Shown: one piece after another, positions 1,173 through 38,151 of the stretch
Position numbering within the stretch: position 1 is the first letter of the stretch
Layout of the letters: each line of letters starts with the position of its first letter
Assembly: GCA_030681195.1 (NCBI GenBank)
Contig: JAUXXJ010000008.1
Location: 124,001-188,000, forward strand
Length of the DNA stretch: 64,000 bases
DNA from: Rhodocyclaceae bacterium
GTDB taxonomy: Bacteria; Pseudomonadota; Gammaproteobacteria; Burkholderiales; Rhodocyclaceae
Direction of reading: 5' to 3'
Made by a program: the position numbers and the translations under genes
Notes under the pieces: generated by a model
The model's database searches: none
The model's input: the letters and a program-made list of their open reading frames with translations, nothing else
What the model was told of the DNA's origin: nothing

Positions 1173-1248
1173 GCCGGCATAGCTCAGTTGGTAGAGCAAC
1201 CGCCTTGTAAGCGGTAGGTCACCAGTTCGACTCCGGTTGCCGGCACCA
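1173..1248 (+). tRNA. tRNA-Thr (anticodon TGT)
   Basis: All cloverleaf parts are visible. The acceptor stem GCCGGCA pairs with TGCCGGC, the anticodon stem ACCGC/GCGGT holds loop CTTGTAA with anticodon TGT, the T-arm has TTCGACT, and CCA is encoded. Its 3' 49 bases are the integration site of the adjacent element and the integration leaves it intact. Confidence 0.97.
1200..1248 (+). repeat. Left att repeat (tRNA-Thr 3' end)
   Basis: This is the first copy of a 49-bp perfect direct repeat, the second being at 19993-20041. It covers the anticodon arm through CCA of tRNA-Thr, the usual target of tyrosine integrases. Identity stops at both edges (a1199 versus g19992, and a1249 versus c20042). Confidence 0.95.
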
Positions 1249-1363: not shown

Positions 1364-1765
1364 ATGGACATCAGAGATGCTTTGAAGGCTACCACACCGC
1401 CCGAAGACGACCCCCGGTCAGCAGCTAACGTCGCCCGGCGCAGGTCATTGAGTATCGCCGAGCGCGACCCTCAAGGCAGACTGCTTCCCGGCAGCACTCT
1501 TCCCGGCGCTGGCCGTAGGGCCGAAGGCGTGACTGTCACCATGCTGGCCCGAAGCCATACCGACATTGCCGTCGCCCTGCTGGCCAAGGCTGTCGTGGAT
1601 GAAACGCAGCCGATGGCCGCGCGAGTGACTGCCGCCCAGGCTTTGCTGGATCGTGGCTGGGGGAAAGCGCCGATCCAAGTTGATGTCCAAGTGCGTGCCC
1701 GATTCGACTCGTTCTTGCGTGATGTTGGACTAGCGGCGCAATGGGAACGGGATCATCCAGCCTGA
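1364..1765 (+). CDS. Hypothetical protein of the element, possibly DNA-associated
   Basis: The product has 133 residues starting at MDIRDALK; upstream starts in the same frame are possible (1352, 1295) but have no better ribosome site. The segment from ALLAKAVVDE to LDRGWGKAP is a short helical stretch of the kind seen in small phage or island proteins of terminase-small-subunit-like character. The N-terminal half is polar and proline/arginine-rich. It is the only rightward gene of the element. I do not recognise a specific family. Confidence 0.55.
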   Translation: MDIRDALKATTPPEDDPRSAANVARRRSLSIAERDPQGRLLPGSTLPGAGRRAEGVTVTMLARSHTDIAVALLAKAVVDETQPMAARVTAAQALLDRGWGKAPIQVDVQVRARFDSFLRDVGLAAQWERDHPA

Positions 1766-1778
1766 TGGGGTAGCGGAT

Positions 1779-1954
1779 AAACGTGTCCGCTCCCGTTACA
1801 CGGTTCTAAGGATAGTAGATGGACGTGTCCGCCCCAGTTACGCGTCCTCAATGGTAGAGGATGCCGTGTCCGCCCCCGTTACAAGGCAGATCGATACGCC
1901 CTAATGTTGATGGATGGGGTGGTGGGTACGTTTGTCCGCTCCCGATACAAACGT
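1779..1954 (+). repeat. Array of four hairpin repeats with constant loop and covarying stems
   Basis: Four copies have an 8-base left arm, an 11-base loop close to CCGCTCCCGTT and an 8-base right arm. They lie at 1779-1805, 1821-1847, 1862-1888 and 1928-1954. The arm ends TGT and ACA are nearly constant but the outer arm bases differ and change together: GGACG pairs with CGTCC, TGCC with GGCA, ACGTT with AACGT. Copy 4 is a perfect stem. A short conserved spacer (near GGTAGNNGAT) separates units of 42-66 bp. No gene is seen between 1766 and 2266; the DNA from 2160 to 2266 is A/T-rich and holds nothing else I can name. Confidence 0.8.
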
Positions 1955-2266: not shown

Positions 2267-3754
2267 TCATATAAATGCCAACTTAATATCATCGACTAGC
2301 TTGGCCGCAGCTTCACCGTTCTGATTCAGCCATGCAAGCGTCAATCTGTCGCGTAGTTTCTCAACGTCAATCCCCATTTCACTTGCCAGCGCAGGAAAGA
2401 CTTTTTTGGCCCACTTACTTCCTGTGTGGTCTATACCTGCAATCTTGGCTCGTCCGAATGCATCACCAATACCATGCATGAGTCCCTCAGCCTGCGCGAT
2501 ATTTTCATCGGATAGAAGCAACTCTTCTGGCGCCAAGTCACCTGGCAAGGAGAAAACATGGTCACCAGCAGCATTGCCAATATCAGCGTCTCTTACGCCG
2601 ACAGCCCGCACTCCCTCTCCCCGGAATGACTGAACCATTCTGTAAACATCATGTGTATTTCCAACAGGGACGATACTCGTATGGTGTAGAAGTGGCCTAT
2701 CAAATCGTTCAAGAATATCGATCAGGAATAGTTTCGCCACAGAGTCCTCGACCAATATCAAATCGTTATTTGATTTAACGACTGACGACAGTTCCCGTGC
2801 TGCTTGGATTGATGGAATGTTGGGCACAACGTCTACACCAGTCTTTCTCCGAGCCAGTAGGATTCGTGCCGATCCCGGTAACGCCTCAAACAGTTCAGCA
2901 GAGTGCGTCGTCAATATGATCTGGTGCCCTTTTCGTTTTGCCAAATTCATAAAGTACCAAGCTAGGCCACGTTGCGCATCTGGATGTAGCGTGATCTCTG
3001 GTTCTTCAATTAGAACTAATGACCTTTCCGGGAGGGCCTCCAAAGCACGCATCAGCCGGATTATCTTTTGTTCACCTGCCCCCATATGAGGCTCAGAATA
3101 GCCAAGGACACCACGTTTAACAAGTGGCAGAACGTCGTTCCAGCTACCCTTTTCCAATCCAACTGTTTGCATTACTCCCGAGTCATATGTAATGCCCAAA
3201 ACCTTCGACATGGAAGTGATTAGGTTCGCGTCGAATGGCGCACTGGCTTTCAGTTCGATCTGCGAACGGAACACATGAAGCCGATCCTTACGTTCTATGC
3301 GAGGAGCGAATGTGGAAATACCGAAAAACTGAACGAACCGTTCTGGATTGTTCCGACGAGGGTAATCCCAGCGAGTCCTATCCTTGCGATATGGAATGGG
3401 CACAACAGGGCAATCGTTCCAGAAACTGAAGCTGACAGATGAGTCTTCACCAAAGGCTGCTGTTTCGTCTTTCAACGCATTACGAACCCATTCGCCAATT
3501 TTGTAGTTTCGTCCCCCTTGGGCACTGACATACGCCGCCGAACAAAGCTGCAATATCGTCGTTTTTCCACTTCCGTTTGTTCCCGCGATTGCAGTCACCG
3601 GCCAAGAAAATTCAACGTCTGCATTTATTCCACGAATCGACCTTACAGCAATGCACTTCAAAATATTTCCGAAACGACCATTGCGAGCTGCCGGATTGCA
3701 CCAAATTTCCGACAAGTCCTCGATGGCGTTATTGAAGTCAGTCTGCGTGGTCAT
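2267..3754 (-). CDS. OLD-like AAA ATPase with TOPRIM-like C-terminus
   Basis: The product has 495 residues. An ABC/SMC-type ATPase fills the first ~320: Walker A GTNGSGKT at 58-65, Walker B SLVLIEEPEITLHP near 245-258, and an H-loop in ILTTHSAEL. The C-terminal part has ILVEDSVAK near 335 and VRDADIG near 387, resembling the acidic motifs of a TOPRIM nuclease, though the usual EGxxE is altered. OLD-family proteins act in phage defence, often with a partner. It starts 3 bases after the helicase stop, so it is the last gene of the defence operon. Its DNA is visibly more A/T-rich than the helicase and methylase genes, suggesting separate acquisition. Its target is unknown. Confidence 0.82.
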   Translation of the reverse strand: MTTQTDFNNAIEDLSEIWCNPAARNGRFGNILKCIAVRSIRGINADVEFSWPVTAIAGTNGSGKTTILQLCSAAYVSAQGGRNYKIGEWVRNALKDETAAFGEDSSVSFSFWNDCPVVPIPYRKDRTRWDYPRRNNPERFVQFFGISTFAPRIERKDRLHVFRSQIELKASAPFDANLITSMSKVLGITYDSGVMQTVGLEKGSWNDVLPLVKRGVLGYSEPHMGAGEQKIIRLMRALEALPERSLVLIEEPEITLHPDAQRGLAWYFMNLAKRKGHQIILTTHSAELFEALPGSARILLARRKTGVDVVPNIPSIQAARELSSVVKSNNDLILVEDSVAKLFLIDILERFDRPLLHHTSIVPVGNTHDVYRMVQSFRGEGVRAVGVRDADIGNAAGDHVFSLPGDLAPEELLLSDENIAQAEGLMHGIGDAFGRAKIAGIDHTGSKWAKKVFPALASEMGIDVEKLRDRLTLAWLNQNGEAAAKLVDDIKLAFI

Positions 3755-3757
3755 TGC

Positions 3758-6553
3758 TCACCATCCATGAGAAAGCAACTCCCTCATGCTCGATGCGTTT
3801 AGAACGGAAGCGCAGGTTTCCCAGTCGGCATCTTCCACCTTGCTGTATTTCGTATCAAACGGATTTCGTGTCGCGGTCGTCCGGTCGATGAGCTGATTGG
3901 CCGCTTGCTCGTCGTTGAGTGCCACCTGCACCCACACATCTTCCAGCGTGTCGGGAATCTGGCCAAACAGTCCGTGGATCGCCTCAAGACGGTCGGCCAG
4001 TACTTGATGGACACGATCCTCGACCGAGCCACGGTAGCGCAGATTGGCGATCCAGATTTCGCTGCGCGCCTGGCCAATGCGCTGGATGCGGCCCTTGCGT
4101 TGTTCCAGCCTGGTCGGGTTCCAAGGCAAGTCGATGTTAATCAGTGTGCCGAGACGCTGAAGATTCAGACCCTCCGAGGCCGCATCGGTGCCGAGCAAGA
4201 GTTTGAGATCACCAGCGCGAACGCGGGCTTTCAGCACATTCCGATCACAACGTTGAAACTTGCCGTCACGCCATAGCCCGGAGCGATTGCTGCCGGCATA
4301 CAGGCCGATGTCCATGCCTGCAAACTCGGCGCGCTTGGCCATTTCATCGCCGATCCAGCGCACTGTGTCGTAATACTGCGAAAACAGAATGCAGCCCAGA
4401 TCGAGCCAGCTACGGCTGACACCTGGATGAGTGCCGCGCAGATAGCCAATCAGCGCTTCCAGCTTTGGATCGTTATTGCCACCTTGTTTAAGCAGATCGA
4501 GGCAACGGCGCAATGAGGCTATTTCCGCGTCTGTGAAATTCTTGAAATCGCTGACGCCCTGCGGTGGCCGTCCGACCTGCGCCGGCATTTCTTCCTCGGC
4601 GTCATCCTCGTCCTCATCATCCAGCGTATCCGGCTCTTCGCCGAGCAGTTTGGCGACGGTACGGCGACCGGCTTCCATCGAGCTGCCCATGCGCCGCAAC
4701 AGCAGTGTCTTGAAAAACCCCGCGCCTTTAACCCTCTGCTGAAGCAACTGGGAAAACGCTTCCGCCTCTTGATACGCATCACGCAAATAACTGCCAAGAG
4801 TCAGCGCGCCCGTCTCATCTTCGCCGAATAGTTTCACCGTTACCTTGGGCAAGAAGTATCCGCCCGTCGCCGGATTGATCGTCGCTTCAAGATAAGCCCG
4901 CGTGCGGCGAACGATACAGCGCAGCAGCGGATTGAAGTTTTCGCCGTAGTTGGGCAATAGTCCGTTTTGAAGTTGAACACGGCGAATCGCAGGCGACAAG
5001 TTATCGAGACTCTCGGGAGTGAACTGCCAGCGCGTGTCGCTGGCATCCAGGCTGCGACGAATACGGTCAAATGCGGGGTCTTCAAACTTTGAGGGGAGCG
5101 GGTCGCGCACATACTCCCACCCTTCGCGGGCATCAGCGCTGGGCACGGTAGCGTCACCCGTTGCAATATCAAGGCAGCGGCTGGCCTGAAACCATGGGCT
5201 GGTATGTGTCCAGCCACCAAGCACGCCCTCATTGCCATGCGAAAGGGTATGCAGTAAATCCCACGCCTCGACCGGGTGCAGCTGCACCGGGGTCGCGGTA
5301 GCCAACAACATACTTTTGGTCTTCGGGCCAATCTCGCGCAGGAAAGTCATCAGCTTGTTCGGATCAGCGCGCTCGTTGATTTCATCGGCATTCGCCTCCA
5401 CCTTCGGCACCTTGCGGCGGCGAGCGCGGTGCGCTTCATCGACGATTACACAGGTGTAACGCCGACTCAGCAATTGACTTACCGCCTCCGACAAGCCGCG
5501 CACCACCAATCCCTGCGACACCAGCCCAATGCGGCGCGGGCACTTGCCGAGCGACTTTGCGCCATCCGACGGATATTCCAGATCGTTCTCGTCCACCCAA
5601 GCCCGCCCATTCCAGCGGGCCGAAGGCAGCAATAACAACTCCATCAACTCATCCTGCCACTGTTGCAGCAGTGGCTTGGGCGCCAGCACCAGAATCGGGC
5701 CGCCATCGGGATCGTCGAGCGCCATCAGCATCGCCGCCATCGCCAACTGAACGGTTTTCCCCAAGCCCACCTGATCGGCCAGAACCAGCCGCGCACCGCC
5801 CAGCCGATGCCGTTCCAGTGCCAAGCGGGCGAAATACTTCTGATGCGGCCACAGTCCCTGTTCGCGGCGATAGACCGGCGTTTCTACGGCGGCAGCGGCA
5901 GCGGCAGCCGTCGGGTCAACAATCGCTTGTAACTCGGTTGGTTCAATCACCTTGCGTGAAATGATCCGTTCCACGTCTTGCACGATGAATGGACAGCAGG
6001 CCAGATCGATAGCACGGGCATCGTTCCACAGCGCGTCAAATTCCTCCTGCACCCAGGCAATCGTTTCTGGATCGTCGTCTTCCCAGAGCAGCTCGTAATT
6101 CAGCTTCCAGGCCGAGAGGCTTTCATTGACGCTGCCCATGAAGGCCGTTGCCGAGCCATCGGCGCTGCGTACTACACCGGCTTTGCCATGGATCAGCCCG
6201 AAAGCGGAATCGGGCAACACCCGCACTTCCATCTTCTTGCTGGTCAGGGCGGCATACAGCGCCTGGTAACGCGGCAGCGCCGCAGGGGGCGCGTCTTCGG
6301 GCTTGCCCGCACACCAACTGCGGCGCAACGCCGCTTGAGCCGCCGCAGCGGTAATCAGGTCTTGCGGGTCAAGGTCAGAGTTGCAAATGATGCGTACCGG
6401 CCCGGCAACGCTGGCAATAGCTTCTCCGGCTATCTCAAACAGGCTGGAACGAAAATAGCCTGCGATGCGGTCGTAAGAAATTGCCCCCGTCAGGCGTTGT
6501 TTCAGTACGCTTTGATCGAGTCGGCTACGCCTGCTGGAATGGCGCTGAATCAT
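3758..6553 (-). CDS. PLD-domain SNF2-family helicase (defence-associated)
   Basis: The product has 931 residues. The N-terminus is phospholipase-D-like: GAISYDRIAGYFRSS, then IHGKAGVV near residue 122 and FMGSVNES, giving an HxK motif. An SNF2/helicase core follows: Walker A QVGLGKT near 263, DEAH in VIVDEAHRAR near 371, motif III LLATATP, and motifs V-VI in GTDAASEGLNLQ and RIQRIGQAR near 829. This architecture is common in DISARM-like and Hma-type loci, where it would translocate on or cleave foreign DNA. Its ATG follows directly on the stop of the BRO-N gene (TGAATG). An acidic low-complexity loop (DDEDEDDAEEE) lies in the middle. Confidence 0.9.
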   Translation of the reverse strand: MIQRHSSRRSRLDQSVLKQRLTGAISYDRIAGYFRSSLFEIAGEAIASVAGPVRIICNSDLDPQDLITAAAAQAALRRSWCAGKPEDAPPAALPRYQALYAALTSKKMEVRVLPDSAFGLIHGKAGVVRSADGSATAFMGSVNESLSAWKLNYELLWEDDDPETIAWVQEEFDALWNDARAIDLACCPFIVQDVERIISRKVIEPTELQAIVDPTAAAAAAAVETPVYRREQGLWPHQKYFARLALERHRLGGARLVLADQVGLGKTVQLAMAAMLMALDDPDGGPILVLAPKPLLQQWQDELMELLLLPSARWNGRAWVDENDLEYPSDGAKSLGKCPRRIGLVSQGLVVRGLSEAVSQLLSRRYTCVIVDEAHRARRRKVPKVEANADEINERADPNKLMTFLREIGPKTKSMLLATATPVQLHPVEAWDLLHTLSHGNEGVLGGWTHTSPWFQASRCLDIATGDATVPSADAREGWEYVRDPLPSKFEDPAFDRIRRSLDASDTRWQFTPESLDNLSPAIRRVQLQNGLLPNYGENFNPLLRCIVRRTRAYLEATINPATGGYFLPKVTVKLFGEDETGALTLGSYLRDAYQEAEAFSQLLQQRVKGAGFFKTLLLRRMGSSMEAGRRTVAKLLGEEPDTLDDEDEDDAEEEMPAQVGRPPQGVSDFKNFTDAEIASLRRCLDLLKQGGNNDPKLEALIGYLRGTHPGVSRSWLDLGCILFSQYYDTVRWIGDEMAKRAEFAGMDIGLYAGSNRSGLWRDGKFQRCDRNVLKARVRAGDLKLLLGTDAASEGLNLQRLGTLINIDLPWNPTRLEQRKGRIQRIGQARSEIWIANLRYRGSVEDRVHQVLADRLEAIHGLFGQIPDTLEDVWVQVALNDEQAANQLIDRTTATRNPFDTKYSKVEDADWETCASVLNASSMRELLSHGW

Positions 6554-7405
6554 TCACTCATCCGTTTTCTTCAATCGTTTTGCTGGGCCACTTTTTAACT
6601 GCTTGAAGTTCTCGGTCGAGATCACCGGCTTGCCACTCTGCTTCTCAATGTCCTTGCGTGTTCTGCCGGCTACCGCACCGCCATCCTTAGCGTCTTTTTT
6701 CAGCGGCGCGATACCCTGCGAATCACGGTCACGGTGCAATTTGGTGGTCGTTGCTTCTCCGAGCATGGTCAGGATCAACTCGATGTCGGTCATGTGGTCG
6801 CGCAAATTTTCTCGCGCCAGCGACTTCACCTGCTTGTATTCGTCCACTTTCAGATCGAAAGTGCCCTGCATGATCTCGTTGGTCAGAATGGCAAACTCCA
6901 CGCTGGAAGCAACGCCGCGCGCCTTCCACTCATCGGTCAAATCCTGCCGCACCGCGATACCGCGCAGGCGCTTGTCGATCCATTCCTTCGGGTAGCCCTT
7001 CTTTTCGTATAACTCCTGCATTCGCGCCATCGACAGTTCGGGGTTCTCGATTTCATCCAGACGCTCCTTGCCCACCTTGGCCAGCCAGCGCTTGAGCGGC
7101 TCCACCTTGGGCGACGGGATAGACTGAATCACCCGGAACAGGGTTTCGGTATTGGCGCAGTCCGTCAGTCGCTGCTTGCCGTCCGGGGCAAGCATTTTCA
7201 ACTGTCCGATTTTTTCGGACACTTCAAAATAACCCTCGGCAATGAGTTTCTTCTTGAGGTCGTTCCAGTACTTGCGCGGGCGGTCGCCCCCTACCAGCGC
7301 CTCAATCACGTCAATGATCGAAAACCACCATTCCCCCGCGTGCAGGGCTTTGCGTATCTCGCGCCCCTCAAATGCGGCCAGGTTTAACTTTTCTTCTTGA
7401 CCCAT
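6554..7405 (-). CDS. BRO-N domain protein embedded in the defence operon
   Basis: The product has 283 residues. The first ~110 match the BRO-N/antirepressor type (EWWFSIIDVIEALVGGDRPRKYWNDL, then a charged helix). The rest is helical and lysine-rich with a basic tail, like DinD-type proteins. BRO-N proteins bind DNA and are often phage antirepressors or SOS-linked factors. Here the gene sits between the methylase and helicase genes with a GAGAGGG ribosome site 13 bases after the methylase stop, so it is cotranscribed. A regulatory or sensing role is an inference from context. Confidence 0.78.
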   Translation of the reverse strand: MGQEEKLNLAAFEGREIRKALHAGEWWFSIIDVIEALVGGDRPRKYWNDLKKKLIAEGYFEVSEKIGQLKMLAPDGKQRLTDCANTETLFRVIQSIPSPKVEPLKRWLAKVGKERLDEIENPELSMARMQELYEKKGYPKEWIDKRLRGIAVRQDLTDEWKARGVASSVEFAILTNEIMQGTFDLKVDEYKQVKSLARENLRDHMTDIELILTMLGEATTTKLHRDRDSQGIAPLKKDAKDGGAVAGRTRKDIEKQSGKPVISTENFKQLKSGPAKRLKKTDE

Positions 7406-7418
7406 ATTGCCCTCTCAA

Positions 7419-10400
7419 TCAGGCGTGATCGTTACGCAGACGCCCCGCCAGAATGCGCGCGGCTTCTGAGTCGGCGATCCATTCGTTCATACCTTCCGCA
7501 TTACCCAGTGCGGCCATCCATTCAAGCAAGCCGACGAAGCCTTCGCGCTTGCCCCAATAGCCTTGGCCGAAGGTGTCACGCAAGTACTGGCGACCGGGTT
7601 CCGGGTTGTTGTCGGCGACGCTGGTTTCGCGGATGGCGAACATCAGGTGGCGCAGCGGCGCAGCGGCAAATGGGTGTGGGCCGGCTGTAGTGGCGCGTCC
7701 CCGGCGAGCAGGCAGCGATGAAGCATCAGCCTCCGCACCCTGAATCGCGCCGAGTAGGCCCGCCCCCAGGCCAGAAGGCGTGAACATGCGCACGCCGTTT
7801 GCCTTGTCGCTCTTGAGCAGCGGCTTGATGTCGGTGACGCCAAAACCCCGCGCCAGTTCTTCATACATGCCCTTGCGGCGTTCGCCCCGGCTTTCGATGT
7901 CCAGTGCCCGCAAGTAGTAGCGTTCCACCAGTGAGAGATCGCGCCATGAATTGTCCAGCCCTCGCGGCACCAGCGTATCGCAGGCGATGCCGAGCGCCCG
8001 TTCGATAACGATCTGGAAATCGCTCTTCTCGTTCTTGCCGCGCACGGCAAAGACTTCGTGCTCCACATCCTTGCCATCGAGGTTGCCGTATTGGGTCAGC
8101 ACCTTGAGCGCGGCGGCGTAGGCGGCAAGCTGGTAGTCGGCATCGTTGAAGTTGGGTTCGCCGCCTTCGTCGAGCGCCTGCATGGAGGCGATCTGGCGTT
8201 TCACTTCGTCTTCGACCAGCGGATATACCTCGTCGAGGAAACCGGGTTCGTTGGCCGTGCGTTTGCGCAGGACGAGGCAGACAGTGCCTTGGACGTAGTT
8301 GCCTTTCTTGATGCCCGCCGCTTCAGTTTCGGTGCTGATCGTCCACGCAGCGGTGGCTTTGAGTCCGGCGGCCCAAAGGATCATGCCGAGGTCGGCCCAT
8401 ACCGCCGGGTTTTGGTGGGTGAACATGACCATCTGCAAGCCGTTATCCGGCATGTGTTTGGCGAGGTTCTTGTATATCTCCACCATGGAACGGCGGAAGT
8501 CTTCGCCATCGCCGCGCACGGCAAGTTCGGCGCGGGCGTCAGGCGTCCATTCGGGGAAGGCTTTGACGAGTTGCTTGTCGTACCAGGCGAGGAAGAAGTC
8601 GCCGAGTTCGTGGTAGTTGACTGCGTCGGCGTAGGGCGGGTCGGTGATCCAGAGGTCGCAAGTTTCGCGGAGGTCGCGTGCGTCTGCTTGCGTCAGTTTG
8701 CCGAGTAGACCGAAGTTCTTTTCATTGGTGTCCGCAAGGATCGAAAATGTATCGCCCAACTTGCTAAGTGCTCGTGTCGCGTAGTTGAAATGGCAGTTCA
8801 GCGCTTGGTTATAGAAGACTTGGTTCCCCTTCTCATTTCCTGCATGAAACATCCAGGCACTGAGCCGCGAATTCCAGTCAGCCATTCGCCCAAGACCAAG
8901 CAAGCACGCGACGCGAGCATGTTTTGAGACAGCTAGACGTTTGCTGGATTCCGCCAGCAACCCATGCGTCAACAACTGCCGTGGCGTGAACAAATGGTGC
9001 CAGTGCGTCCAGCCGCGCTCGCGGTATAGGCGCGCGGTTTCGTCGCCGCTCTCGGGTATCGACATCGACGGAATAAACCCCTCGCGTTGCCAGTCCGCAA
9101 AACGTTCGTGCAGCAGTTCCAGCACCTTGGCTTCGCGGGCAAGGTCGGTCGCATCGGGGGCGGCATAGCGACGGATTTCTTTCGGTTTGCCATTCCTGAT
9201 GACGGTCTTTACCCAGCGGATGCAATAAAGCCGTTCCTGAAACACATCGCCGGACTGCGGTACGAGGTCTTCGTTCATCCAGCGCCGCAGTCCATCGGGG
9301 CCGCGCAAGGCTTCGACCGACCAGGTGCGGGTAGCGTCGAAGGGATCGACGACGCGGCTGTCGACCACCGTCGCGCCTTGCTTCTCCTTGTAAAGCTTCA
9401 GTTCGGCATCCGAAACCACTGCGATTTCCGGCGTTAGAAAGTCGGCGCTGGCGGGACGGCGCCAACGGGCGATGACCTTCGATTTTTCGCCGATCAGCCA
9501 ACTGGGTGCCAGCGGAATGAAATAGTCGCAGCCCTCCGGCTTTACTTCCACGCAGTAAAGGAAAGCATCGGCGCGCTCGCCCTGCTCATTGTGTTCGATA
9601 CCCCATTCGGTAACTTGTCGGTCGGCAGCGGCCAGCGCCTCGGCTTGCACGCGCATGACTTCTTTCTGCACGTCCTTGCCGCCGCCGAGCAGATTCAGGC
9701 TGGCCCAGGTCAGCAGCCCGGCCACGGGGTTGAGGTCTGAACCGAAGGCTTCGCAACCCATGCGGGCGGCCTCAAAGGGGATGGAGCCGCCACCGCAAAA
9801 ACTATCGCCGATACGCGGCGTATGGCCAAAGCTGCGATGACCGAGTTGTTCGACCAACTCAGTCAAGCAGGTCGCCGTGGTGCCCAAATGGGCATTGATC
9901 TCCGCCCAAGCACTCTCAGAAGGGCCTTCGACGTTCTCCGGGCGTTCGCAAAGGGTGAGTCTCTCAGTGTAACTGTGGCGCTGGAAGATGGCCCTCTGAA
10001 GTTTCTGGATGAAGTCATCCAGCGCCTTCCAGTGCCCCTCGACATCGCTCACTGCTTGGTCGATGGCCGCCCGCGCTTTTTCGACCGCCACGGCGTCGCT
10101 ACGGTCAACCCGATTGGAGGCTTCCCGGTGCAAGCGCACCCTTTCCCGCGCTAATTCCACGCGGCCATCTAGCTCGTTCCATTCCGCCCTTTCCTCTGGC
10201 GTCGCAAGGACACCCAACTCCGAAACAGTAAAGTGTTTGTCGTCCCGCCAGCGACCGATGGTTCCTGCATCATCCATAGTCAGAATCTTGAGGAAGATCT
10301 CGCGGTCTTTTTTTGCATCGTCTGAGGCGGGCATAAGCATGCCCAGGATGGAAGCCCGGACGAGAATCAGCGGTTTGCGCCCCCACCATTTGCCTAGCCG

Positions 10401-10493
10401 GGTGAGCGTCTGCCCGTTGTTTGCCTTGCGTTCCTTGTAAGACTCGGCAGAAAGTCGCGCAATGGGAAATTGGGTTTCAATGAAGCTAGGCAT
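7419..10493 (-). CDS. DUF1156 adenine-specific DNA methylase
   Basis: The product has 1024 residues. The N-terminus FIETQFPIARLSAESYKERKA is characteristic of DUF1156 (COG1743). An AdoMet-binding motif (DSFCGGGSIPFEAARMG) lies near residue 231 and the catalytic DPPY (WITDPPYADAVNYHEL) near 616. The enzyme would mark host DNA at N6-adenine so that the operon's effector genes spare it. I chose ATG at 10493 because MPSFIETQFP is the usual family start. A TTG at 10508 overlaps the previous stop and is the alternative. One copy of the window's interspersed repeat (9438-9463) lies in frame inside this gene. Confidence 0.9.
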   Translation of the reverse strand: MPSFIETQFPIARLSAESYKERKANNGQTLTRLGKWWGRKPLILVRASILGMLMPASDDAKKDREIFLKILTMDDAGTIGRWRDDKHFTVSELGVLATPEERAEWNELDGRVELARERVRLHREASNRVDRSDAVAVEKARAAIDQAVSDVEGHWKALDDFIQKLQRAIFQRHSYTERLTLCERPENVEGPSESAWAEINAHLGTTATCLTELVEQLGHRSFGHTPRIGDSFCGGGSIPFEAARMGCEAFGSDLNPVAGLLTWASLNLLGGGKDVQKEVMRVQAEALAAADRQVTEWGIEHNEQGERADAFLYCVEVKPEGCDYFIPLAPSWLIGEKSKVIARWRRPASADFLTPEIAVVSDAELKLYKEKQGATVVDSRVVDPFDATRTWSVEALRGPDGLRRWMNEDLVPQSGDVFQERLYCIRWVKTVIRNGKPKEIRRYAAPDATDLAREAKVLELLHERFADWQREGFIPSMSIPESGDETARLYRERGWTHWHHLFTPRQLLTHGLLAESSKRLAVSKHARVACLLGLGRMADWNSRLSAWMFHAGNEKGNQVFYNQALNCHFNYATRALSKLGDTFSILADTNEKNFGLLGKLTQADARDLRETCDLWITDPPYADAVNYHELGDFFLAWYDKQLVKAFPEWTPDARAELAVRGDGEDFRRSMVEIYKNLAKHMPDNGLQMVMFTHQNPAVWADLGMILWAAGLKATAAWTISTETEAAGIKKGNYVQGTVCLVLRKRTANEPGFLDEVYPLVEDEVKRQIASMQALDEGGEPNFNDADYQLAAYAAALKVLTQYGNLDGKDVEHEVFAVRGKNEKSDFQIVIERALGIACDTLVPRGLDNSWRDLSLVERYYLRALDIESRGERRKGMYEELARGFGVTDIKPLLKSDKANGVRMFTPSGLGAGLLGAIQGAEADASSLPARRGRATTAGPHPFAAAPLRHLMFAIRETSVADNNPEPGRQYLRDTFGQGYWGKREGFVGLLEWMAALGNAEGMNEWIADSEAARILAGRLRNDHA
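9438..9463 (-). repeat. Interspersed repeat copy A (inside the DUF1156 methylase gene)
   Basis: Reverse-strand copy of the window-wide repeat: GCCGTCC followed by GCCAGCGCCGACTTT. Read in frame as RRPASADF by the methylase. Confidence 0.6.
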
Positions 10494-10504
10494 AAACGAT
10501 GAAC

Positions 10505-11131
10505 TCAAAGTGAAAGGGAGAGCTGCGAATGACCCAGCAGCTCACGACGGGCTTTGGGCGACAAGCCTTCGCCTTTGACAAACGGGTTGTCGGCAATGGC
10601 GGCACGCAGCGCCTTCCGCCAGCCCAGCCCTTTTTGCATGGCCTGTCCGGTGGTCGCCACGGTCATGGTGTAGAGCCACCAGCGCTCTTCGGGGGCCAGC
10701 GCCTCCCAGTTGTGCAGGGCGTTCGGGATGTCATCCGGCGAGGCATCTTCCACCGCCCAACACAGGATGCATAACTCCTTGCCCAGCGACGGATGCACCG
10801 GCACGGGCTTGCCGGGATTTTTCTGGAACTTGGCGACCGGCAGGCCGTTGGCACGCAAGCGGCGATTGGCTTCCTCCCAAAATGTGGGCGCCAGTGCCAG
10901 CCAGCGGTTGCGGTCGATGACCACACGCAGCGACGGATCGTTGGGCGCAGGGGTATCCACTGTGCGCGCCCCCAAACGGTCAAGGTCGTTGCCCCGGTGC
11001 TCGGTGATGCAGATCATTTCACTGCTGCCGCTGCCCTTGGGAATGTCGATCAGAAAACCGTGGCGGGCTTCCTCAGGCAGAAAGCCAAGGCCGACGACCT
11101 TGCGGGTGGCGGGAGATGATGCGCGGGACAT
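10505..11131 (-). CDS. DUF3780 defence-associated protein
   Basis: The product has 208 residues from an ATG one base after the DUF499 stop (TAGCATG), starting MSRASSPATRKVVGLGF. DUF3780 proteins occur almost only beside DUF499 and DUF1156 genes. The segment FLIDIPKGSGSSEMICITEH is a mixed beta region, and the C-terminal half is helical with a WWLYTMTVATTGQAM segment. No catalytic motif is evident. The family function is unknown; tight coupling to the ATPase gene suggests a subunit of the same complex. Confidence 0.78.
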   Translation of the reverse strand: MSRASSPATRKVVGLGFLPEEARHGFLIDIPKGSGSSEMICITEHRGNDLDRLGARTVDTPAPNDPSLRVVIDRNRWLALAPTFWEEANRRLRANGLPVAKFQKNPGKPVPVHPSLGKELCILCWAVEDASPDDIPNALHNWEALAPEERWWLYTMTVATTGQAMQKGLGWRKALRAAIADNPFVKGEGLSPKARRELLGHSQLSLSL

Positions 11132-11132
11132 G

Positions 11133-14100
11133 CTACTGCACGACCTTGGCGGCGTTGAACGGCTGATTCGTGGCTCTGAGCCAGTCAAGCAATGCCTGCC
11201 CAGTGGGGAATGCCAGCGAACCAACGCTCATGCGCAAGCTACCGCTGCTGACAATTTCTTGTAGGCGCTCGGCAACGGTCTTGATAGCCGCCGCCGCATA
11301 GCCACCTTCCAGCGCGCCGGAATACTCGACGTTCTGCTGGCCATCGGGGCTTTCCGCCGTGAGGCTGATGTCGTGAGCCGTTACGCCGGTTGCCCCTTCC
11401 AGCCGCTGAAGGAAATCCCACACTGCGCCGGCGTCGTCACACTTGGTCTGCTGGTTCCAGCGTGCGGGGGTGGCGAGGTCAATCGGCGGACGGGCATCTT
11501 GGCCTTGCTGGGGGATGGGGATACGGATGTTGTCAGAGTTCAGCCCGTAGTCGGTGGCGACGGCGATGGCAGAGACAACGCGGCAATTCGCCGGGACGCG
11601 AAATTTGCCGTCGTAGGTAGCCGAGCCTGCGCTGGTGGGCGAAGAACCGTCGGTGGTGTAGCGGATGGTGATGCCGTTGGCTTTGGGCAGCGCGAGACAC
11701 TCGATCTCGTAATGATCGCCTCGATTGTGCAACTGGTATTTCAGTCGCAGCTTGGCTGTCCACTCCTTTACTGCGCTCACGCGCACCATGTCGGCGGGGT
11801 CAAAAGCGAGGAAACGATAGCGCAGTGCCGTGGCTTCAAAGCGGGTAGGCGTTGGCACCGGGCTTGAAGCTGGCGTGGGGTCGGTGTCGCCGGTTTCAAA
11901 AACAACAGCGGGTGCGTGCAGCGGTTCGATTTTCAGATAGGTAATGCCGTCGCCGTCTTCCTGTACCGAGAGTTCGCGTATCGACACTTCGGGCACGGGT
12001 GGCGGAAAGGGGCCACGGCGAACGTGGTTGCCTTCTTCGCGCCATAGGCCACGCCGCAGACAATCGGCTTTGAGGTCATCCAGTGCCGAGAGTTTGTGTA
12101 GCGGCCAGGTAGTATTAACGGCAGCGGCGCGTTTGAAGTCAGACCAGAGAACGACTTTGCTGTCACTTGAACCGAACAGGCGCGCCTCGGCACGGGTGCG
12201 GAAGCTGTCGTCGTCGATCTTGGTGGTGAATTTCTGCGCGCCTTCAAGGGTGTGCCGCAGGGTAGCTTCGCCATTCTGATTTCCGGCAAAGGCGAGGTCG
12301 GTACCGGTGGCACGCAAGGCAGCATTGATTGACGGATAGACGATCTGGTCGAAGGCTTCCTTCAGGGCGGCGGTGAATTGCAGGCCGACCCGGTCGCGCA
12401 GCGTATCGAGCGCCCGCCATTGCGGATCGTCGGCGGGGGTGTTCTCCGAGCGGAGTTCGTCGTCGATGCTTTGCAGGGCACGGGTCTGGCGGGCCGAGTC
12501 GAGCACCTTCTGAAAGGTATCCCGCGAGCCAGTAAGAAAGAGGACGCGGTTCTTGTATTGCTGTTGTTCCCACCATGCTTGCCAGTCGGCGGAAATCGGC
12601 AACTGATTGGCCTGCCCGCCTGGGCGAACGATGATGAGCGTGGTTTTTTCCTGCTCGACCTGCACTTCATCGGGCGGCGGCAGAACCTTGATGACCTGAT
12701 AACAGTCACGCAGCGAAGCCGAAAAGTAGTTTTCCAGATGCTCTCGCAGCATCCGTTCAACCGTTTCGCCATGCAACGAAAGCGCCGTGGAGCGCAGCTT
12801 GGCGGCGAGATTCTGTTGGTTTTTGAAGTACAGCCGACCGTCGGCGGAATTGTGCAAATACCAGGCGCGGGTGGCCAGTTTGTCGAGGACGTTAGCCTTG
12901 AAGGTGGAGAGGTCACGACCGGGGCGTTGCAGGCAATCGACCAACTGATATTCGCGCAAGCCGTGGATGGCGCCCGGTGTCGTGGAGAGCGAGGCGACGA
13001 GAATCAGGCGGGCGGCATCCGAGGCATCGGAGTTGCCGTTGGCCACGTCGATCTCTTCGACCTCCGCTGCGCCGGCGTGGGCGATGTCGTGGGCGATGGC
13101 TTCACTCAGCGACGGGTTGATGGTGCGGACTTCGGACGCGATTTCATCCAGATTCAGATCGAGATCGTAGGGGTGGATCAGGTCGATGCCTTCGGCACGT
13201 TTGGAATTCCATAGGCTTGCCACCACCATCTGCATCAAGCGAATGACGCCACGGGTTTGCTGGAAGCCCTCGTTCTCCTTGAACTTGCCGACGAGTTCGC
13301 GTAGATCGGGGTGGAAGGGGTAGGCGTCGGTGACGCGGGTGAACAAGGCTTCCGGGGAGGTCGTGGTCAGGTTCATCTTGACCGCATCGCGCAGCGCCTC
13401 ACGGTAAGCCTCGGCGACTTTCTGGATTTGCGCTGCTGGCGCAACGGTTTCAAACAGACGCTTGCGCAGGATGTGATACAGCTCGTCGCCATTTGGGTTG
13501 ACCGGCGTGATCGGCACGGCAATACGTCTCGCTTCGGCGGCGATGCCTTGAGTCGCACGGTTGAATGCAGCTTCCAGTGCGGCCTGCCCGCCGCCATAGT
13601 TCGACCCAGCAAGATCGGAGACGACGAGGCATACGTTGTCCATTTCAGCAACAGCAATGAATAAATTCGCCAGCGCGGTAGTGGTTACCACACCAAGATC
13701 GCCGTTACCCACCGGGACGGCAACGGCATTGGCCAAATAAGGAGGGAGTTCGTCGAGGAACAACACCAGCGGATCGCCGCCGAGCAATTGCTTCCAGGCC
13801 TCTGGCCCCGGCGCGTTAAGCAGCGGTGAGACGTAACGGGCGAACTGTTCAGCTTTGTTGAGTTGCTCGGCAATCGAACCCCAGATACCGCCGGGGGCGT
13901 CGGTGCTGCGGCCATTGAAGCCGGCGACACGGCAGCTTCCTAGATTCGGCGCAGGATTTTGCTCGCCAACAAGCACCTTTTTACGCAACTCAGGGTCGCG
14001 CGCCAACAGCCCCAGCGCGATCATGCTGTGCGTCTTACCGCCCCCCATAGCCTGCGAAAGCAGGAAGACCGAAGAACCCGCCCCTGCACCGCCCAAATGG

Positions 14101-14270
14101 CGGAATGCCCGATCCACCAAGGTAAGCATGCCGTTGGTGAAGTAGTTCTCATCGAAGAACTCACCGCCATCGACTTGGCCTTTGATGAAGGTGTCGAGGT
14201 TGAGTACTGTGGCACGGCGGTCAGCCGCAAAAACAGACTGGCGTGGCTTGCAAAGAGAATGAATGCTCAT
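11133..14270 (-). CDS. DUF499 AAA+ ATPase, first gene of the defence operon
   Basis: The product has 1045 residues and is close to the COG1483/DUF499 family, related in role to PglY/BrxC of BREX/Pgl systems. Walker A is MGGGKTHS near 75-82 and Walker B is LVLFLDELPPYL near 168-180. The N-terminal FDENYFTNGMLTLVDRAFRHL is typical. The C-terminal third carries a chitobiase-like beta segment (TIRYTTDGSSPTSAGSATYDGKF). It is the promoter-proximal gene of a six-gene leftward unit whose intergenic gaps are all under 15 bases, so all six are probably one transcript. Expected role: ATP-driven core of a helicase-methylase-ATPase defence complex. Confidence 0.9.
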   Translation of the reverse strand: MSIHSLCKPRQSVFAADRRATVLNLDTFIKGQVDGGEFFDENYFTNGMLTLVDRAFRHLGGAGAGSSVFLLSQAMGGGKTHSMIALGLLARDPELRKKVLVGEQNPAPNLGSCRVAGFNGRSTDAPGGIWGSIAEQLNKAEQFARYVSPLLNAPGPEAWKQLLGGDPLVLFLDELPPYLANAVAVPVGNGDLGVVTTTALANLFIAVAEMDNVCLVVSDLAGSNYGGGQAALEAAFNRATQGIAAEARRIAVPITPVNPNGDELYHILRKRLFETVAPAAQIQKVAEAYREALRDAVKMNLTTTSPEALFTRVTDAYPFHPDLRELVGKFKENEGFQQTRGVIRLMQMVVASLWNSKRAEGIDLIHPYDLDLNLDEIASEVRTINPSLSEAIAHDIAHAGAAEVEEIDVANGNSDASDAARLILVASLSTTPGAIHGLREYQLVDCLQRPGRDLSTFKANVLDKLATRAWYLHNSADGRLYFKNQQNLAAKLRSTALSLHGETVERMLREHLENYFSASLRDCYQVIKVLPPPDEVQVEQEKTTLIIVRPGGQANQLPISADWQAWWEQQQYKNRVLFLTGSRDTFQKVLDSARQTRALQSIDDELRSENTPADDPQWRALDTLRDRVGLQFTAALKEAFDQIVYPSINAALRATGTDLAFAGNQNGEATLRHTLEGAQKFTTKIDDDSFRTRAEARLFGSSDSKVVLWSDFKRAAAVNTTWPLHKLSALDDLKADCLRRGLWREEGNHVRRGPFPPPVPEVSIRELSVQEDGDGITYLKIEPLHAPAVVFETGDTDPTPASSPVPTPTRFEATALRYRFLAFDPADMVRVSAVKEWTAKLRLKYQLHNRGDHYEIECLALPKANGITIRYTTDGSSPTSAGSATYDGKFRVPANCRVVSAIAVATDYGLNSDNIRIPIPQQGQDARPPIDLATPARWNQQTKCDDAGAVWDFLQRLEGATGVTAHDISLTAESPDGQQNVEYSGALEGGYAAAAIKTVAERLQEIVSSGSLRMSVGSLAFPTGQALLDWLRATNQPFNAAKVVQ

Positions 14271-14746: not shown

Positions 14747-14968
14747 TCAGCGGGTCGTTATAGTCGCCCAGGCGTTTCTGCGCGCGATGGTGTGTGGATC
14801 GTCGGCGCGCAGCACGGCAGCCAGCAGCGCCTTGATCTTGGCCCTTGGTAGGCCAGAATGGAAAATGAAGCGGCGTAGTGCATCTTCGCAAGCGGCGAGG
14901 GTGATGCCGTATGGGACGATTAGGGGGGGTGGGAACCAATAAACCAGACAAACCAGACAAACCAACAA
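14747..14968 (-). CDS. Possible small protein next to the replication region
   Basis: Up to 73 residues. The last ~55 (from VPYGITLAACEDALRRF through WATITTR) look like a compact helical protein. The first ~15 are low complexity and come from the repeat region, so the true start is uncertain. No ribosome site stands out. It lies between the origin-like repeats and the defence operon. Weakly supported. Confidence 0.3.
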   Translation of the reverse strand: MLVCLVCLVYWFPPPLIVPYGITLAACEDALRRFIFHSGLPRAKIKALLAAVLRADDPHTIARRNAWATITTR

Positions 14969-15084
14969 AACCGAGCAAACCCAAGCGCCCCAATGGTTCC
15001 CACCCGGTTTTCACTGGTGCAGCAAGACAACGGCGCATTTTGGTATTTTGGTTTATCCGGTTTTCCGGTTTTCCGCCCCCCCTA
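14921..15084. repeat. Iteron-like and inverted repeats, candidate replication origin of the element
   Basis: A 12-bp perfect inverted repeat (GGGTGGGAACCA at 14927-14938, TGGTTCCCACCC at 14994-15005) encloses about five tandem 9-10-base units based on AAACCAGAC (14941-14985). On the other strand AAAACCGG repeats twice near 15055-15073, and a G7 run at 14923 is mirrored by a C7 run just before the primase stop. Tandem short repeats next to a P4-type primase-helicase gene are what an origin or its copy-control region would look like. Confidence 0.5.
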
Positions 15085-17124
15085 TCAGCAAAACGGATTT
15101 AGCTTGTAGATGTGGGCGTTATCCTCTTCGATACTGACATTCCAGAATTGATAGTTGGTAAAGGACTTGCCGGTATGGTCTTTCAGGGCACGCATCACTA
15201 CGCGTTTAGTGAGACATCCCGCCTCCATCGCCGCCTTGATGAGTTCAGTCTTCTTGTTTGTACCTGCCCGGATAGTCTCGCGTATTGCGGCAACCGCTTC
15301 TTCATTGCGCTTCAGCATCGCGTCCAATTCCCTTTTCTTCATCACCGACGCCTTTTCCTCATCGCTGATCGACCTGACAGAATCGAGCTTTCCTTGATAA
15401 CTCAGGTCTTCGCTAAAGTCGTATTCGTAGATGGCTTCTAATGCCACGTCGCCCCGATTCTTTAAGTTTGTGAACTTTACGGTACGAAGCCCGGTGGACT
15501 TATCCTTGCTGACCGTGTCAAGTGTATAGGCGCAGTCACAGTCATCCACCAAGTCTGTCGTGCCGGAGTAGACAACGTGCCCATCATCGTCCCGATGTTT
15601 GTTGACGTGTGCCAAGCCGATTACCGTTCCGCCATGCATTGAGAATCGACGAACAGTCTCGCCGAACTTTGTTCCCTTTTTCTTATCCATGATGTCAGCG
15701 AACTTTTTGACGGTGTCGAGAATGACCACCTTGCCTCGCGCAGACCCATTTTCGATCATCGCATCCAAGTACGAAGCCAGCAACTCCGGTTTGAATTCCA
15801 TGTATCCCGGTGCAATTACGATGAAACCATGTTTTTCGCCCAACTCAATTTTGAATGTCAGTCCCTTGTGGTTGTCGTCGGCATTGATGAAGTAGATATC
15901 TCTGGCGTCGATCTCACCACGCTTAATTGCGTCTATCAGCAGCCAAAGGATCAGCAGGGTTTTCCCTACATTCGGAGACGCATACCAAAAGGTAATTTGC
16001 CCAAGAATCGCCAATCTTCCGACGACAAATTTATCTGCAAGCATTTTTTTCCTCATTTCGGCGGCACTACCGTTAAGTGCAAAGCTGTCCAGATTGAACT
16101 GGTCTGGAATTGACGCGCTTTTGGGGGCAGGGAGAAGGGGGCGGTCTGCTGACACAATTGCATCCGCTATTAGGAGCCTCACCGCTTCCAGACCATGTAG
16201 CGCGTACAAATCATTGAAGTCGGTCGCGCCGTTCGGTCGGTCTGGGCCGAAGTCGGGAACAACCACCGTTGCGCCGACAGACTGGGCCGCAGTAGCGGCG
16301 TTAGTTCGGCCAGGATTACCTTCGGTGAGATGGTCGTCGTCGGCACAGAGGATAAGAGGTAAGTCCGGGAACTTGGCTCTAATGGCTTCCGAAACCGGCT
16401 TCAGATTGTTGGCATTGAAGGCCACGGCGACAGGGTGGCCGGTCGCTTGGTGAATCGACGCGCCGGTTGCAAATCCTTCGGCGATGCATAAGACGACAGC
16501 CCCATCCATCGTGCCAATCGGGAAAAAGCAGCCAGTCCGCCTGCCGCGATAAAGTCCTTTTTTGTCAAAACTTCCGTCTTCGGCTTTGACAGGCGTAACG
16601 CGCTCTACATTCCACAGCTTGCCTTCAATATCGAACATCGGGATCGCCAACCGCCCATCGGGGAGGATTTTCGTGCCATGAGGCAGAACACTTTTGCTCT
16701 TCAGATAGGGTTGATTCTCGGTCGCCGGAATTGCGGCATCCCAGATTGCGATAGCTTGAACCGACGCACTTTTATTGCCCCGCGCCTTATCTGCGTCGCG
16801 TTCCAGCCGCATAGCTTCGACCTTGGCACGGTGTGCAGTTTCTTCCTGGTGGTTGAGTGCGCGCCCAATGTCGGCCTTCCACGGATAGGAAATGCCCGTG
16901 CGCCAGTCTCCGAAAATTCCAGCAGAAACACCGTCAATGTGCAGTACATACCACCCAGCATCATCACCACGTTTGCTGTTAGTGGCAAAGCGGTGCAGCT
17001 TGCCGTCGGCCTCGATCACATCCGGCGGTGGCAGGCCTGCGGCCCTGATCGCATCTGAAAATTGAGCTACTGGATTGATTGGTGCCGACAACCGTGGCGG
17101 GAGGAATTGCGGAATGGCGACCAT
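15085..17124 (-). CDS. P4-type primase-helicase
   Basis: The product has 679 residues from MVAIPQF; AGGAAGG lies 6 bases before this ATG. An N-terminal zinc-less primase-like region (WYVLHIDGVSAGIFGDWRTG) is followed by a TOPRIM domain with CIAEGFATGASIH and ILCADDDH, the counterpart of EGYATG in the P4 alpha primase. A RepA/DnaB-like RecA-fold helicase follows, with Walker A YASPNVGKT and Walker B VVILDT. It would prime and unwind the element's own replication. The gene is more A/T-rich than the host average, as expected for imported DNA. It ends in the origin-like repeats. Confidence 0.88.
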   Translation of the reverse strand: MVAIPQFLPPRLSAPINPVAQFSDAIRAAGLPPPDVIEADGKLHRFATNSKRGDDAGWYVLHIDGVSAGIFGDWRTGISYPWKADIGRALNHQEETAHRAKVEAMRLERDADKARGNKSASVQAIAIWDAAIPATENQPYLKSKSVLPHGTKILPDGRLAIPMFDIEGKLWNVERVTPVKAEDGSFDKKGLYRGRRTGCFFPIGTMDGAVVLCIAEGFATGASIHQATGHPVAVAFNANNLKPVSEAIRAKFPDLPLILCADDDHLTEGNPGRTNAATAAQSVGATVVVPDFGPDRPNGATDFNDLYALHGLEAVRLLIADAIVSADRPLLPAPKSASIPDQFNLDSFALNGSAAEMRKKMLADKFVVGRLAILGQITFWYASPNVGKTLLILWLLIDAIKRGEIDARDIYFINADDNHKGLTFKIELGEKHGFIVIAPGYMEFKPELLASYLDAMIENGSARGKVVILDTVKKFADIMDKKKGTKFGETVRRFSMHGGTVIGLAHVNKHRDDDGHVVYSGTTDLVDDCDCAYTLDTVSKDKSTGLRTVKFTNLKNRGDVALEAIYEYDFSEDLSYQGKLDSVRSISDEEKASVMKKRELDAMLKRNEEAVAAIRETIRAGTNKKTELIKAAMEAGCLTKRVVMRALKDHTGKSFTNYQFWNVSIEEDNAHIYKLNPFC

Positions 17125-17125
17125 T

Positions 17126-17401
17126 TCACACCTTCCTTTCTTGCCGCCGATAACCGGCAGAAAATCCGTCACCCGTGACATCGTCGATGGCTTCATAAAT
17201 CGTTTGGAGATTCTTGACGATTGACGCCCCGATTTCTCGGTGCGCTTGGGTCTGCTGCATTATGGCCGCGACAAGTCGGTCAAGTTGAATGGCAATTTCA
17301 GGATGGGCGCAGCACGCTTTTGCTGCTGCTTGCGTATGATCGGAGTCAGCCGCCAAAGCTAACGCGCTCTCGATTGCATCTTGAGTGAGGGCGACGTCCA
17401 T
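17126..17401 (-). CDS. Small hypothetical protein in the replication module
   Basis: The product has 91 residues, mostly alpha-helical (LALAADSDHTQAAAKACCAHPE, then IQLDRLVAAIMQQTQAHREIG). It ends one base before the primase ATG and begins just left of the previous gene's stop, so the three genes form one leftward unit. No family recognised. Confidence 0.7.
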   Translation of the reverse strand: MDVALTQDAIESALALAADSDHTQAAAKACCAHPEIAIQLDRLVAAIMQQTQAHREIGASIVKNLQTIYEAIDDVTGDGFSAGYRRQERKV

Positions 17402-19992: not shown

Positions 19993-20041
19993 CCGCCTTG
20001 TAAGCGGTAGGTCACCAGTTCGACTCCGGTTGCCGGCACCA
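19993..20041 (+). repeat. Right att repeat (tRNA-Thr 3' fragment)
   Basis: This is a 49-bp perfect copy of 1200-1248. It lacks the 5' half of the tRNA and is not a functional tRNA gene. It marks the right boundary of the element. Confidence 0.95.
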
Positions 20042-37464: not shown

Positions 37465-37761
37465 ATGGCTGAACACATGGGTATCGCACTGGGCATGATT
37501 GAAACACGTGGTCTGATTCCCGCGATTGAGGCAGCGGACGCGATGACCAAGGCAGCCGAAGTGCGTCTGATCGGTCGTCAATTTGTCGGCGGCGGCTACG
37601 TCACGGTGCTGGTGCGTGGCGAGACGGGTGCAGTCAATGCGGCCGTACGTGCCGGCGCGGATGCGTGCGAGCGCGTTGGCGACGGACTGGTGGCTGCCCA
37701 CATCATCGCCCGCGTCCACAACGAAGTCGAAGGCATCCTGCCCACATCGCCGGCGGCCTGA
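37465..37761 (+). CDS. csoS1: Carboxysome shell hexamer CsoS1 (copy 1)
   Basis: The product has 98 residues, a single BMC domain (IALGMIETRGLIPAIEAADA, RLIGRQFVGGGYVTVLVRGE, VGDGLVAAHIIARVHNEVE). AAGGAG precedes the start. It is a major facet protein. The letter (A or C) cannot be fixed from sequence alone. Confidence 0.96.
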   Translation: MAEHMGIALGMIETRGLIPAIEAADAMTKAAEVRLIGRQFVGGGYVTVLVRGETGAVNAAVRAGADACERVGDGLVAAHIIARVHNEVEGILPTSPAA

Positions 37762-37811
37762 ATCATCACCCCCTGATTTACCACTTTCAATATTTTTTCG
37801 AGGAGACATTA

Positions 37812-38108: not shown

Positions 38109-38151
38109 GTGCGGTCGGACGCAATCACCGAGTTAACTGAAGGAGACTGAG

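What the first reader, a model, noticed from the sequence alone, without database searches (positions are those of the whole stretch)
1779..1954. Four tandem hairpins with a constant loop and compensating stem changes
The loop CCGCYCCMGWT and the flanking TGT/ACA are nearly fixed, while outer stem bases differ between copies and change in pairs (GGACG/CGTCC, TGCC/GGCA, ACGTT/AACGT). That pattern indicates selection for structure. The array sits at the element's left end between a small unknown gene and the defence operon. It could be a set of small RNAs or decoys, a recombination or replication site, or protein-binding hairpins. I know no named family with this loop.
Basis: seen in the sequence. 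Interest (0 to 1): 0.62.

Follow-up and report, generated by a model that had tools for sequence, protein, structure and literature searches.

The report
Four tandem hairpins, constant loop, orphan
A mobile DNA island in a bacterium carries four short hairpins in a row whose loops are nearly the same while their stems differ but still pair; no relative was found in the searches made, and what the array does is not known.

Summary
The array is real and at the stated coordinates. The outer stem bases pair in 18 of 20 positions although the copies differ; 0 of 2,000,000 letter shuffles and 0 of 200,000 random quadruples reach that. Five of eight stem pairs change on both sides, slid partners pair far less, and differences show no codon-position bias. 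The array sits in an 18.8-kb tRNA-Thr element (49-bp att repeats) with integrase, primase and a defence-type operon, a layout like phage-inducible chromosomal islands, just after a small gene whose relatives weakly resemble terminase small subunits.

I found no relative: a covariance model hit only this genome convincingly (395 family, 200 order genomes, overlapping samples), DNA scans gave chance or coding hits, 25 stretches round related primases hold no such array, and a second att-flanked element of the same genome, with an 82% identical small gene, lacks it. Integrase arm sites (no copy near attR) and a replication origin (a better candidate follows the primase gene) became less likely. 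Whole-array RNA folding does not favour the hairpins. Best guess, at low confidence: a loop-presenting binding platform used single-stranded, probably the plus strand. A packaging site and neutral quasi-palindromes remain open.

The parts
1779..1805 (+). hairpin 1: stem 8 (one A.G mismatch), loop CCGCTCCCGTT 1787-1797
1821..1847 (+). hairpin 2: stem 8 (one U.G pair), loop CCGCCCCAGTT 1829-1839
1862..1888 (+). hairpin 3: stem 8 (one G.A mismatch), loop CCGCCCCCGTT 1870-1880
1928..1954 (+). hairpin 4: perfect 8-bp stem, loop CCGCTCCCGAT 1936-1946
1767..1778 (+). purine-rich box before hairpin 1 (similar boxes at 1810-1820, 1853-1861, 1916-1927 and a partial one at 1959-1964)
   Evidence: seen in sequence; alignment A2; ungapped identity of this stretch among copies only 0.42
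1367..1765 (+). small gene just upstream (132 aa, PHROG 15261 family, unknown function; terminase-small-subunit-like at best)
   Evidence: low-confidence fold
1200..1248 (+). attL: 49 bp of the tRNA-Thr 3' end, repeated at attR
19993..20041 (+). attR: identical 49-bp repeat, right end of the element
18418..19809 (-). tyrosine integrase of the element (Phage_integrase, Arm-DNA-bind_3)
15088..17196 (-). primase-helicase of the element (Toprim_3; AAA_25 below its curated cut-off)
14927..15084 (.). putative replication origin of the element: 12-bp perfect stem, 55-nt loop with AAACCAGAC repeats, GGTTTTCC repeats on the other side
   Evidence: sequence only
2267..14270 (-). cargo: AAA ATPase, PLD helicase, BRO-N protein, DUF1156 methylase, DUF3780, DUF499 (defence-type operon)

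Best explanation
A non-coding, structure-selected array on a phage-satellite-like island. Shown: four tandem short hairpins whose apical part (3 bp plus an 11-nt loop) is nearly constant while the lower stem changes sequence but keeps pairing. Inferred: the loop is what a partner recognises and the lower stem only props it up, so the array acts while single-stranded. I think the plus strand, read through as RNA from the small gene just upstream, is the likelier form: it would present four copies of one ligand site to a protein (of the element or of a helper phage) as a platform or decoy. Which partner, and whether RNA or single-stranded DNA, is not shown.
For: Compensated arms at the same 5+3 positions in the four copies. 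No sign of protein constraint: differences among copies fall 26/26/23 over codon positions, and the two open frames through the array have no family match above cut-off; the longer one (to 2161) has no convincing match in phages or plasmids (best E 8 and 4) and in the genome itself only a 25-aa tail beside the second small gene. The three non-Watson-Crick pairs are A.G, U.G and G.A on the plus strand, hence U.C, A.C and C.U on the minus strand, a weak strand hint. Cut out as 27-mers, copies 2, 3 and 4 keep the stem in their RNA MFE on both strands. Only 13 nt separate the array from the stop of a plus-strand gene. Constant top and free lower stem is the pattern of hairpins recognised through the loop (general knowledge, not tested).
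Against: As RNA the four-hairpin structure scores -24.9 against an MFE of -77.4 kcal/mol, with mean pair probabilities 0, 0.41, 0, 0; plus-strand single-stranded DNA gives 0, 0.02, 0.48, 0.89. Of the plus-strand units with their boxes only copy 2 has the hairpin as RNA MFE; in copy 1 the purine box pairs with the loop. No promoter-like site and no terminator after the array were found at 1250-2400. The array is absent from the second element, so no cross-species covariation exists.
Confidence: 0.32

Rival explanations
1. Packaging or other double-stranded protein-binding site: four direct 17-bp sites next to a terminase-small-subunit-like gene, read like the R sites of a cosB; the paired arms would be secondary.
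For: The gene next door belongs to PHROG 15261, whose relatives in L165 and L166 match terminase small subunit PHROGs weakly (best E 5e-4 and 0.017); in the window and in the genome's second element it lies at the end opposite the integrase; in PICIs a terS homolog, where present, lies beyond the replication module on the side away from int (PMC6092414, passages read). Spacings 42, 41, 66 bp are 4.0, 3.9, 6.3 helical turns.
Against: Does not explain paired changes in the arms. The second element, with an 82% identical gene, has no array. The gene's own Pfam and NCBIfam matches are below cut-off and its fold was not resolved.
Confidence: 0.18
2. Neutral: a local tandem repeat whose quasi-palindromes were made symmetric by template-switch mutation, with no function.
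For: Convincing copies in one genome only in the scans made; folding does not favour the hairpins. Template switching is known to perfect quasi-palindromes (general knowledge).
Against: The core stays 0.87 identical while the arms fall to 0.3, which drift plus repair of the arms alone does not predict; consistent pairing stops at the same base in the four copies.
Confidence: 0.22
3. Replication origin or primase-loading hairpins of the element, as in pRN1 or RSF1010 ssi sites.
For: The element encodes a primase-helicase; 2150-2299 is 66% A+T; stem-loop origins or initiators with primases exist (PMC4234260, PMC4434180, passages read).
Against: The sequence just after the primase stop has an iteron-like stem-loop, and 11 of 22 primase loci (window, L165-L184, L191) have a perfect inverted repeat of 10 bp or more within 200 nt there, against 77 of 1320 random stretches of the same loci; PICI origins lie immediately 3' of the replication gene (PMC6092414). 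The primase relatives fetched lack the array.
Confidence: 0.1
4. Remnant of a repeat-bearing coding region; the core reads VR[SP][RS]Y in a frame open to 2161.
For: G+C by codon position 0.67/0.54/0.67 for 1850-2161 resembles coding.
Against: Copies 1-2 and 3-4 are in different frames; no codon-position bias in differences; no family or convincing database match; coding does not predict paired arms.
Confidence: 0.08
5. Type III antitoxin-like RNA repeats or attC-like recombination hairpins.
For: Tandem structured repeats of about 41 nt in a mobile element.
Against: No toxin gene follows the array; the next gene is a convergent AAA ATPase. attC keeps its foot constant and varies the top (recalled), the reverse of this array. 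No Rfam match.
Confidence: 0.04

Closest known systems
Phage-inducible chromosomal islands (PICI), PMC6092414 (passages read)
   Same: integrase at one end, primase gene, iteron-like origin just after the primase gene, specific attachment site, a possible terminase-small-subunit homolog beyond the replication module
   Different: no hairpin array of this kind is mentioned in the passages I read; the element carries a large defence operon; helper, excision and packaging untested
RSF1010 ssiA/ssiB primase hairpins, PMC4434180 (passages read)
   Same: about 40-nt units with a short hairpin, on a replicon with its own primase
   Different: ssi is one per strand; the solved complex shows contacts to its 5' tail and first base pair, not its loop; here four tandem copies with constant loops, 13 kb from the primase gene
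lambda cosB R sites (three TerS binding sites, PMC6092414)
   Same: several short direct sites near a terminase-small-subunit-like gene
   Different: R sites are not known to me to have compensated flanks (recalled)
CcsR1-4 tandem sRNAs of Rhodobacter (PMC7866481, passages read)
   Same: four related RNAs cut from one co-transcript
   Different: that their loops carry a CUCCUCCC motif is recalled; loops 2 and 3 here lack CUCC; no transcript shown here

Membership tests
PICI / phage satellite (the element) | attachment-site repeats with integrase | tested here: met
   49-bp repeats 1200-1248 / 19993-20041, integrase
PICI / phage satellite (the element) | primase-replication gene followed by iteron origin | tested here: met
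   (sequence only, no replication test)
PICI / phage satellite (the element) | terminase small subunit homolog (present in some) | tested here: inconclusive
   weak PHROG matches of relatives only; fold pLDDT 57
PICI / phage satellite (the element) | induction and packaging by a helper phage | not testable with these tools
   needs a lysogen and induction
Any Rfam RNA family (the array) | match at the gathering score | tested here: not met
   also no match on the array at E up to 5
Integrase arm-type sites | copies on both sides of the element (near attL and attR) | tested here: not met
   only the four copies in 64 kb at up to 3 mismatches
Iteron replication origin (the array) | lies beside the replication gene and recurs in relatives | tested here: not met
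   13 kb from the primase gene; absent from the relatives fetched
cosB / pac site | bound by the terminase small subunit | not testable with these tools
   needs a binding assay
Type III toxin-antitoxin | repeat array followed by an RNase toxin gene | tested here: not met
   the next gene is a convergent AAA ATPase
attC array | constant foot boxes, variable top, integron integrase (definition recalled) | tested here: not met
   arms variable and top constant; the element's integrase scores 16.7 bits against a cut-off of 265 for the integron integrase model

The most novel reading that the evidence does not exclude
An undescribed class of tandem hairpin array on phage-satellite-like islands: several copies of one loop are presented on freely drifting but pairing stems, as a multivalent decoy, sensor or packaging handle for a helper-phage or element protein.
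Probability: 0.25. Interest if true: 0.68.

Novelty: new variant of a known kind. Interest (0 to 1): 0.42.

Why it matters
If the array is functional it would be a case where structure, not sequence, is kept in a few tandem copies within one mobile element, and it would point to an RNA- or single-strand-based step in how a satellite-like island deals with its host or helper. As it stands it is a strong structural signal without relatives, so its value depends on a binding or deletion experiment.

Tried and rejected
Tried without result. Rfam. Array DNA against phages and plasmids (no match). Region 1250-2266 against plasmids (no match). Two-copy pattern in viral contigs (0) and in genome contigs (1 stretch, inside a coding repeat of an Oscillospiraceae protein). 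Looser two-copy pattern in viral contigs (19 stretches; none of their cores has more than 3 of 5 outer pairs). One of the four, L240, has two cores 33 bp apart (3 and 5 outer pairs) inside a 300-aa reading frame; I treat it as coding or initiator repeats, not as a relative. One-mismatch pattern in 101 genomes: 45 matches, 4 of them the array, against 58 for the reversed control (my count from the table); of the 41 others I looked at the sequence round two, single copies. Own genome, shorter pattern: the four plus one place with a mismatch on another contig. Model R1: 71 of 395 family genomes, this one included, have a match at E 0.5 or better (stricter filters that lose weak matches); apart from this genome the best is 27.7 bits against 47-57 for the array; I searched 24 of those loci again and read the 10 alignments shown; in the listing no other genome has two hits at hairpin spacing (G117 has three hits 1.4 kb apart). 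4 of 200 order genomes at E 0.05, this genome included; some of the 200 were already in the family sample. Detector: of three settings two find only this array and the strictest on stems (6 perfect pairs) finds nothing, the array included; one shuffle per locus and setting gave 0. Small gene in viral contigs: one 17-residue match, judged chance; in phages 12 records and in plasmids 3, all under 60% identity and partial. Primase and the 85-aa frame in viral contigs: no relative. DNA 1764-2266 in 395 family genomes: 34 genomes, this one included; outside this genome matches are at most 52 bp, treated as chance. Literature searches in the held library for such arrays listed nothing on point (listings only); that is no proof of absence. 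In related element L165 I looked for a second copy of the tRNA-Leu end and found none of 18 nt or more.

Full report
What is there. Four hairpins lie at 1779-1805, 1821-1847, 1862-1888 and 1928-1954 on the plus strand. Each has an 8-bp stem (5 variable outer pairs, 3 nearly constant inner pairs) and an 11-nt loop CCGCYCCMGWT. A purine-rich box precedes each; the spacing is 42, 41 and 66.

More than chance. 18 of 20 outer positions pair by Watson-Crick rules although the copies differ; 200,000 random quadruples reach at most 15 and 2,000,000 letter shuffles at most 16. On the alignment, 5 of 8 pairs change on both sides (5 of 500 shuffles do as well), 93.5% of 31 cells pair (0 of 500), and slid partners pair 19-58%. 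A generic detector of three or more tandem hairpins with constant tops and different arms finds only this array in 43 loci (737,209 bases, the window included; all loci over 7 kb held at that time) with two of three settings, and nothing in one shuffle of each; the third setting, which demands perfect 6-bp stems, does not find the array itself. Limits: four copies, one genome; the alignment was made without the structure, but one gap falls in a stem column of copy 3.

Not protein repeats. The core can be read as VR[SP][RS]Y in a frame that stays open to 2161 and has coding-like composition, but the first two and last two copies are in different frames, differences among copies show no codon-position bias (26/26/23), and no family or convincing database match was found, apart from a 25-aa tail in the genome's own second element.

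Where it sits. tRNA-Thr at 1173-1248; 49 bp of its 3' end are repeated at 19993-20041, which bounds an element with integrase, primase-helicase and a defence-type operon: DUF1156 methylase, DUF499, PLD helicase, DUF3780, BRO-N, AAA ATPase. The small gene 1367-1765 just before the array has an 82% identical copy in the same genome. That copy is part of a second element, about 11.3 kb long: the last 45 nt of a tRNA-Met recur beyond it (L062 6171-6215 and 17502-17546), an integrase lies at one end and the small gene at the other (L062 6553-7698 and 16898-17320). There the array is missing: 33 bp separate the two matching blocks against 327 bp in the window, and model R1 gives at most 15.3 bits in that stretch. 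So the array lies between backbone sequences, not in the cargo, and is not needed by every element with this gene. A further relative lies just after a tRNA-Ser, with an integrase gene on the other side, and is followed at once by a Mutator-family transposase gene, so its downstream side cannot be judged. In a third element (G238, L165) the small gene lies beyond the primase gene, away from the integrase.

Distribution. See Tried and rejected for the scans. Genome names are hidden, so I do not name the species.

Form and strand. The non-Watson-Crick pairs are A.G, U.G and G.A on the plus strand, a weak hint for that strand. Energy tells against a simple RNA reading: the four-hairpin structure scores -24.9 against -77.4 kcal/mol for the RNA MFE; as DNA -21.6 against -37.5 (plus strand). 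Cut out as 27-mers the stems of copies 2, 3 and 4 are in the RNA MFE on both strands; copy 1 keeps only its inner five pairs on the plus strand. With their boxes, only copy 2 of the four plus-strand units keeps the hairpin; in copy 1 the purine box pairs with the loop. No promoter-like site was found at 1250-2400 and no terminator after the array.

Which function. Integrase arm sites would need copies near attR; there are none. For an origin, the sequence after the primase stop is the better candidate: a perfect 12-bp stem with repeats in its loop. 11 of 22 primase loci (the window among them) have a perfect inverted repeat of at least 10 bp in the 200 nt after the stop, against 77 of 1320 random stretches (one locus gave only 164 nt). 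PICI origins lie immediately 3' of the replication gene (PMC6092414, passages), and pRN1 needs a stem-loop after its primase gene (PMC4234260, passages). A packaging site fits the neighbour gene, whose relatives match terminase small subunit profiles weakly, but not the compensated arms, and the single-sequence fold is poor (mean pLDDT 57). What remains is a structure whose constant part is the top: I commit to a loop-recognised platform in single-stranded form, confidence 0.32, with neutral quasi-palindromes (0.22) and a packaging site (0.18) close behind.

Verdict. Interest 0.42.

Noticed in passing
window 14927-15084; L165, L168, L170, L172, L175-L178, L181-L183: Directly after the primase stop there is an iteron-like stem-loop; position but not sequence recurs: 11 of 22 primase loci have a perfect inverted repeat of 10 bp or more within 200 nt (window, L168, L170, L172, L175-L178, L181-L183), against 77 of 1320 random stretches; L165 has nine GTGGGAC/GTCCCAC repeats within 700 nt there. 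Looks like the replication origin of this satellite-like family.
   Followed up: partly
L062 6171-17546 (own genome, contig C52): A second integrated element, bounded by a 45-nt repeat of the tRNA-Met 3' end, with an integrase and the 82% identical small gene at opposite ends and different cargo.
   Followed up: partly
window 37465-38490: Three tandem near-identical reading frames, the first with a BMC (bacterial microcompartment shell) domain; they cause the 340-bp tandem repeat.
   Followed up: partly
window 57653-59606: Rfam group II intron matches (RF02003 and RF00029).
   Followed up: no
L240 3620-3760 (reverse-complement coordinates), viral contig IMGVR_UViG_3300032332_000896: Repeats containing ATAGTGTC inside a 300-aa reading frame of a phage contig; possibly origin repeats within an initiator gene.
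   Followed up: partly
   Followed up: partly
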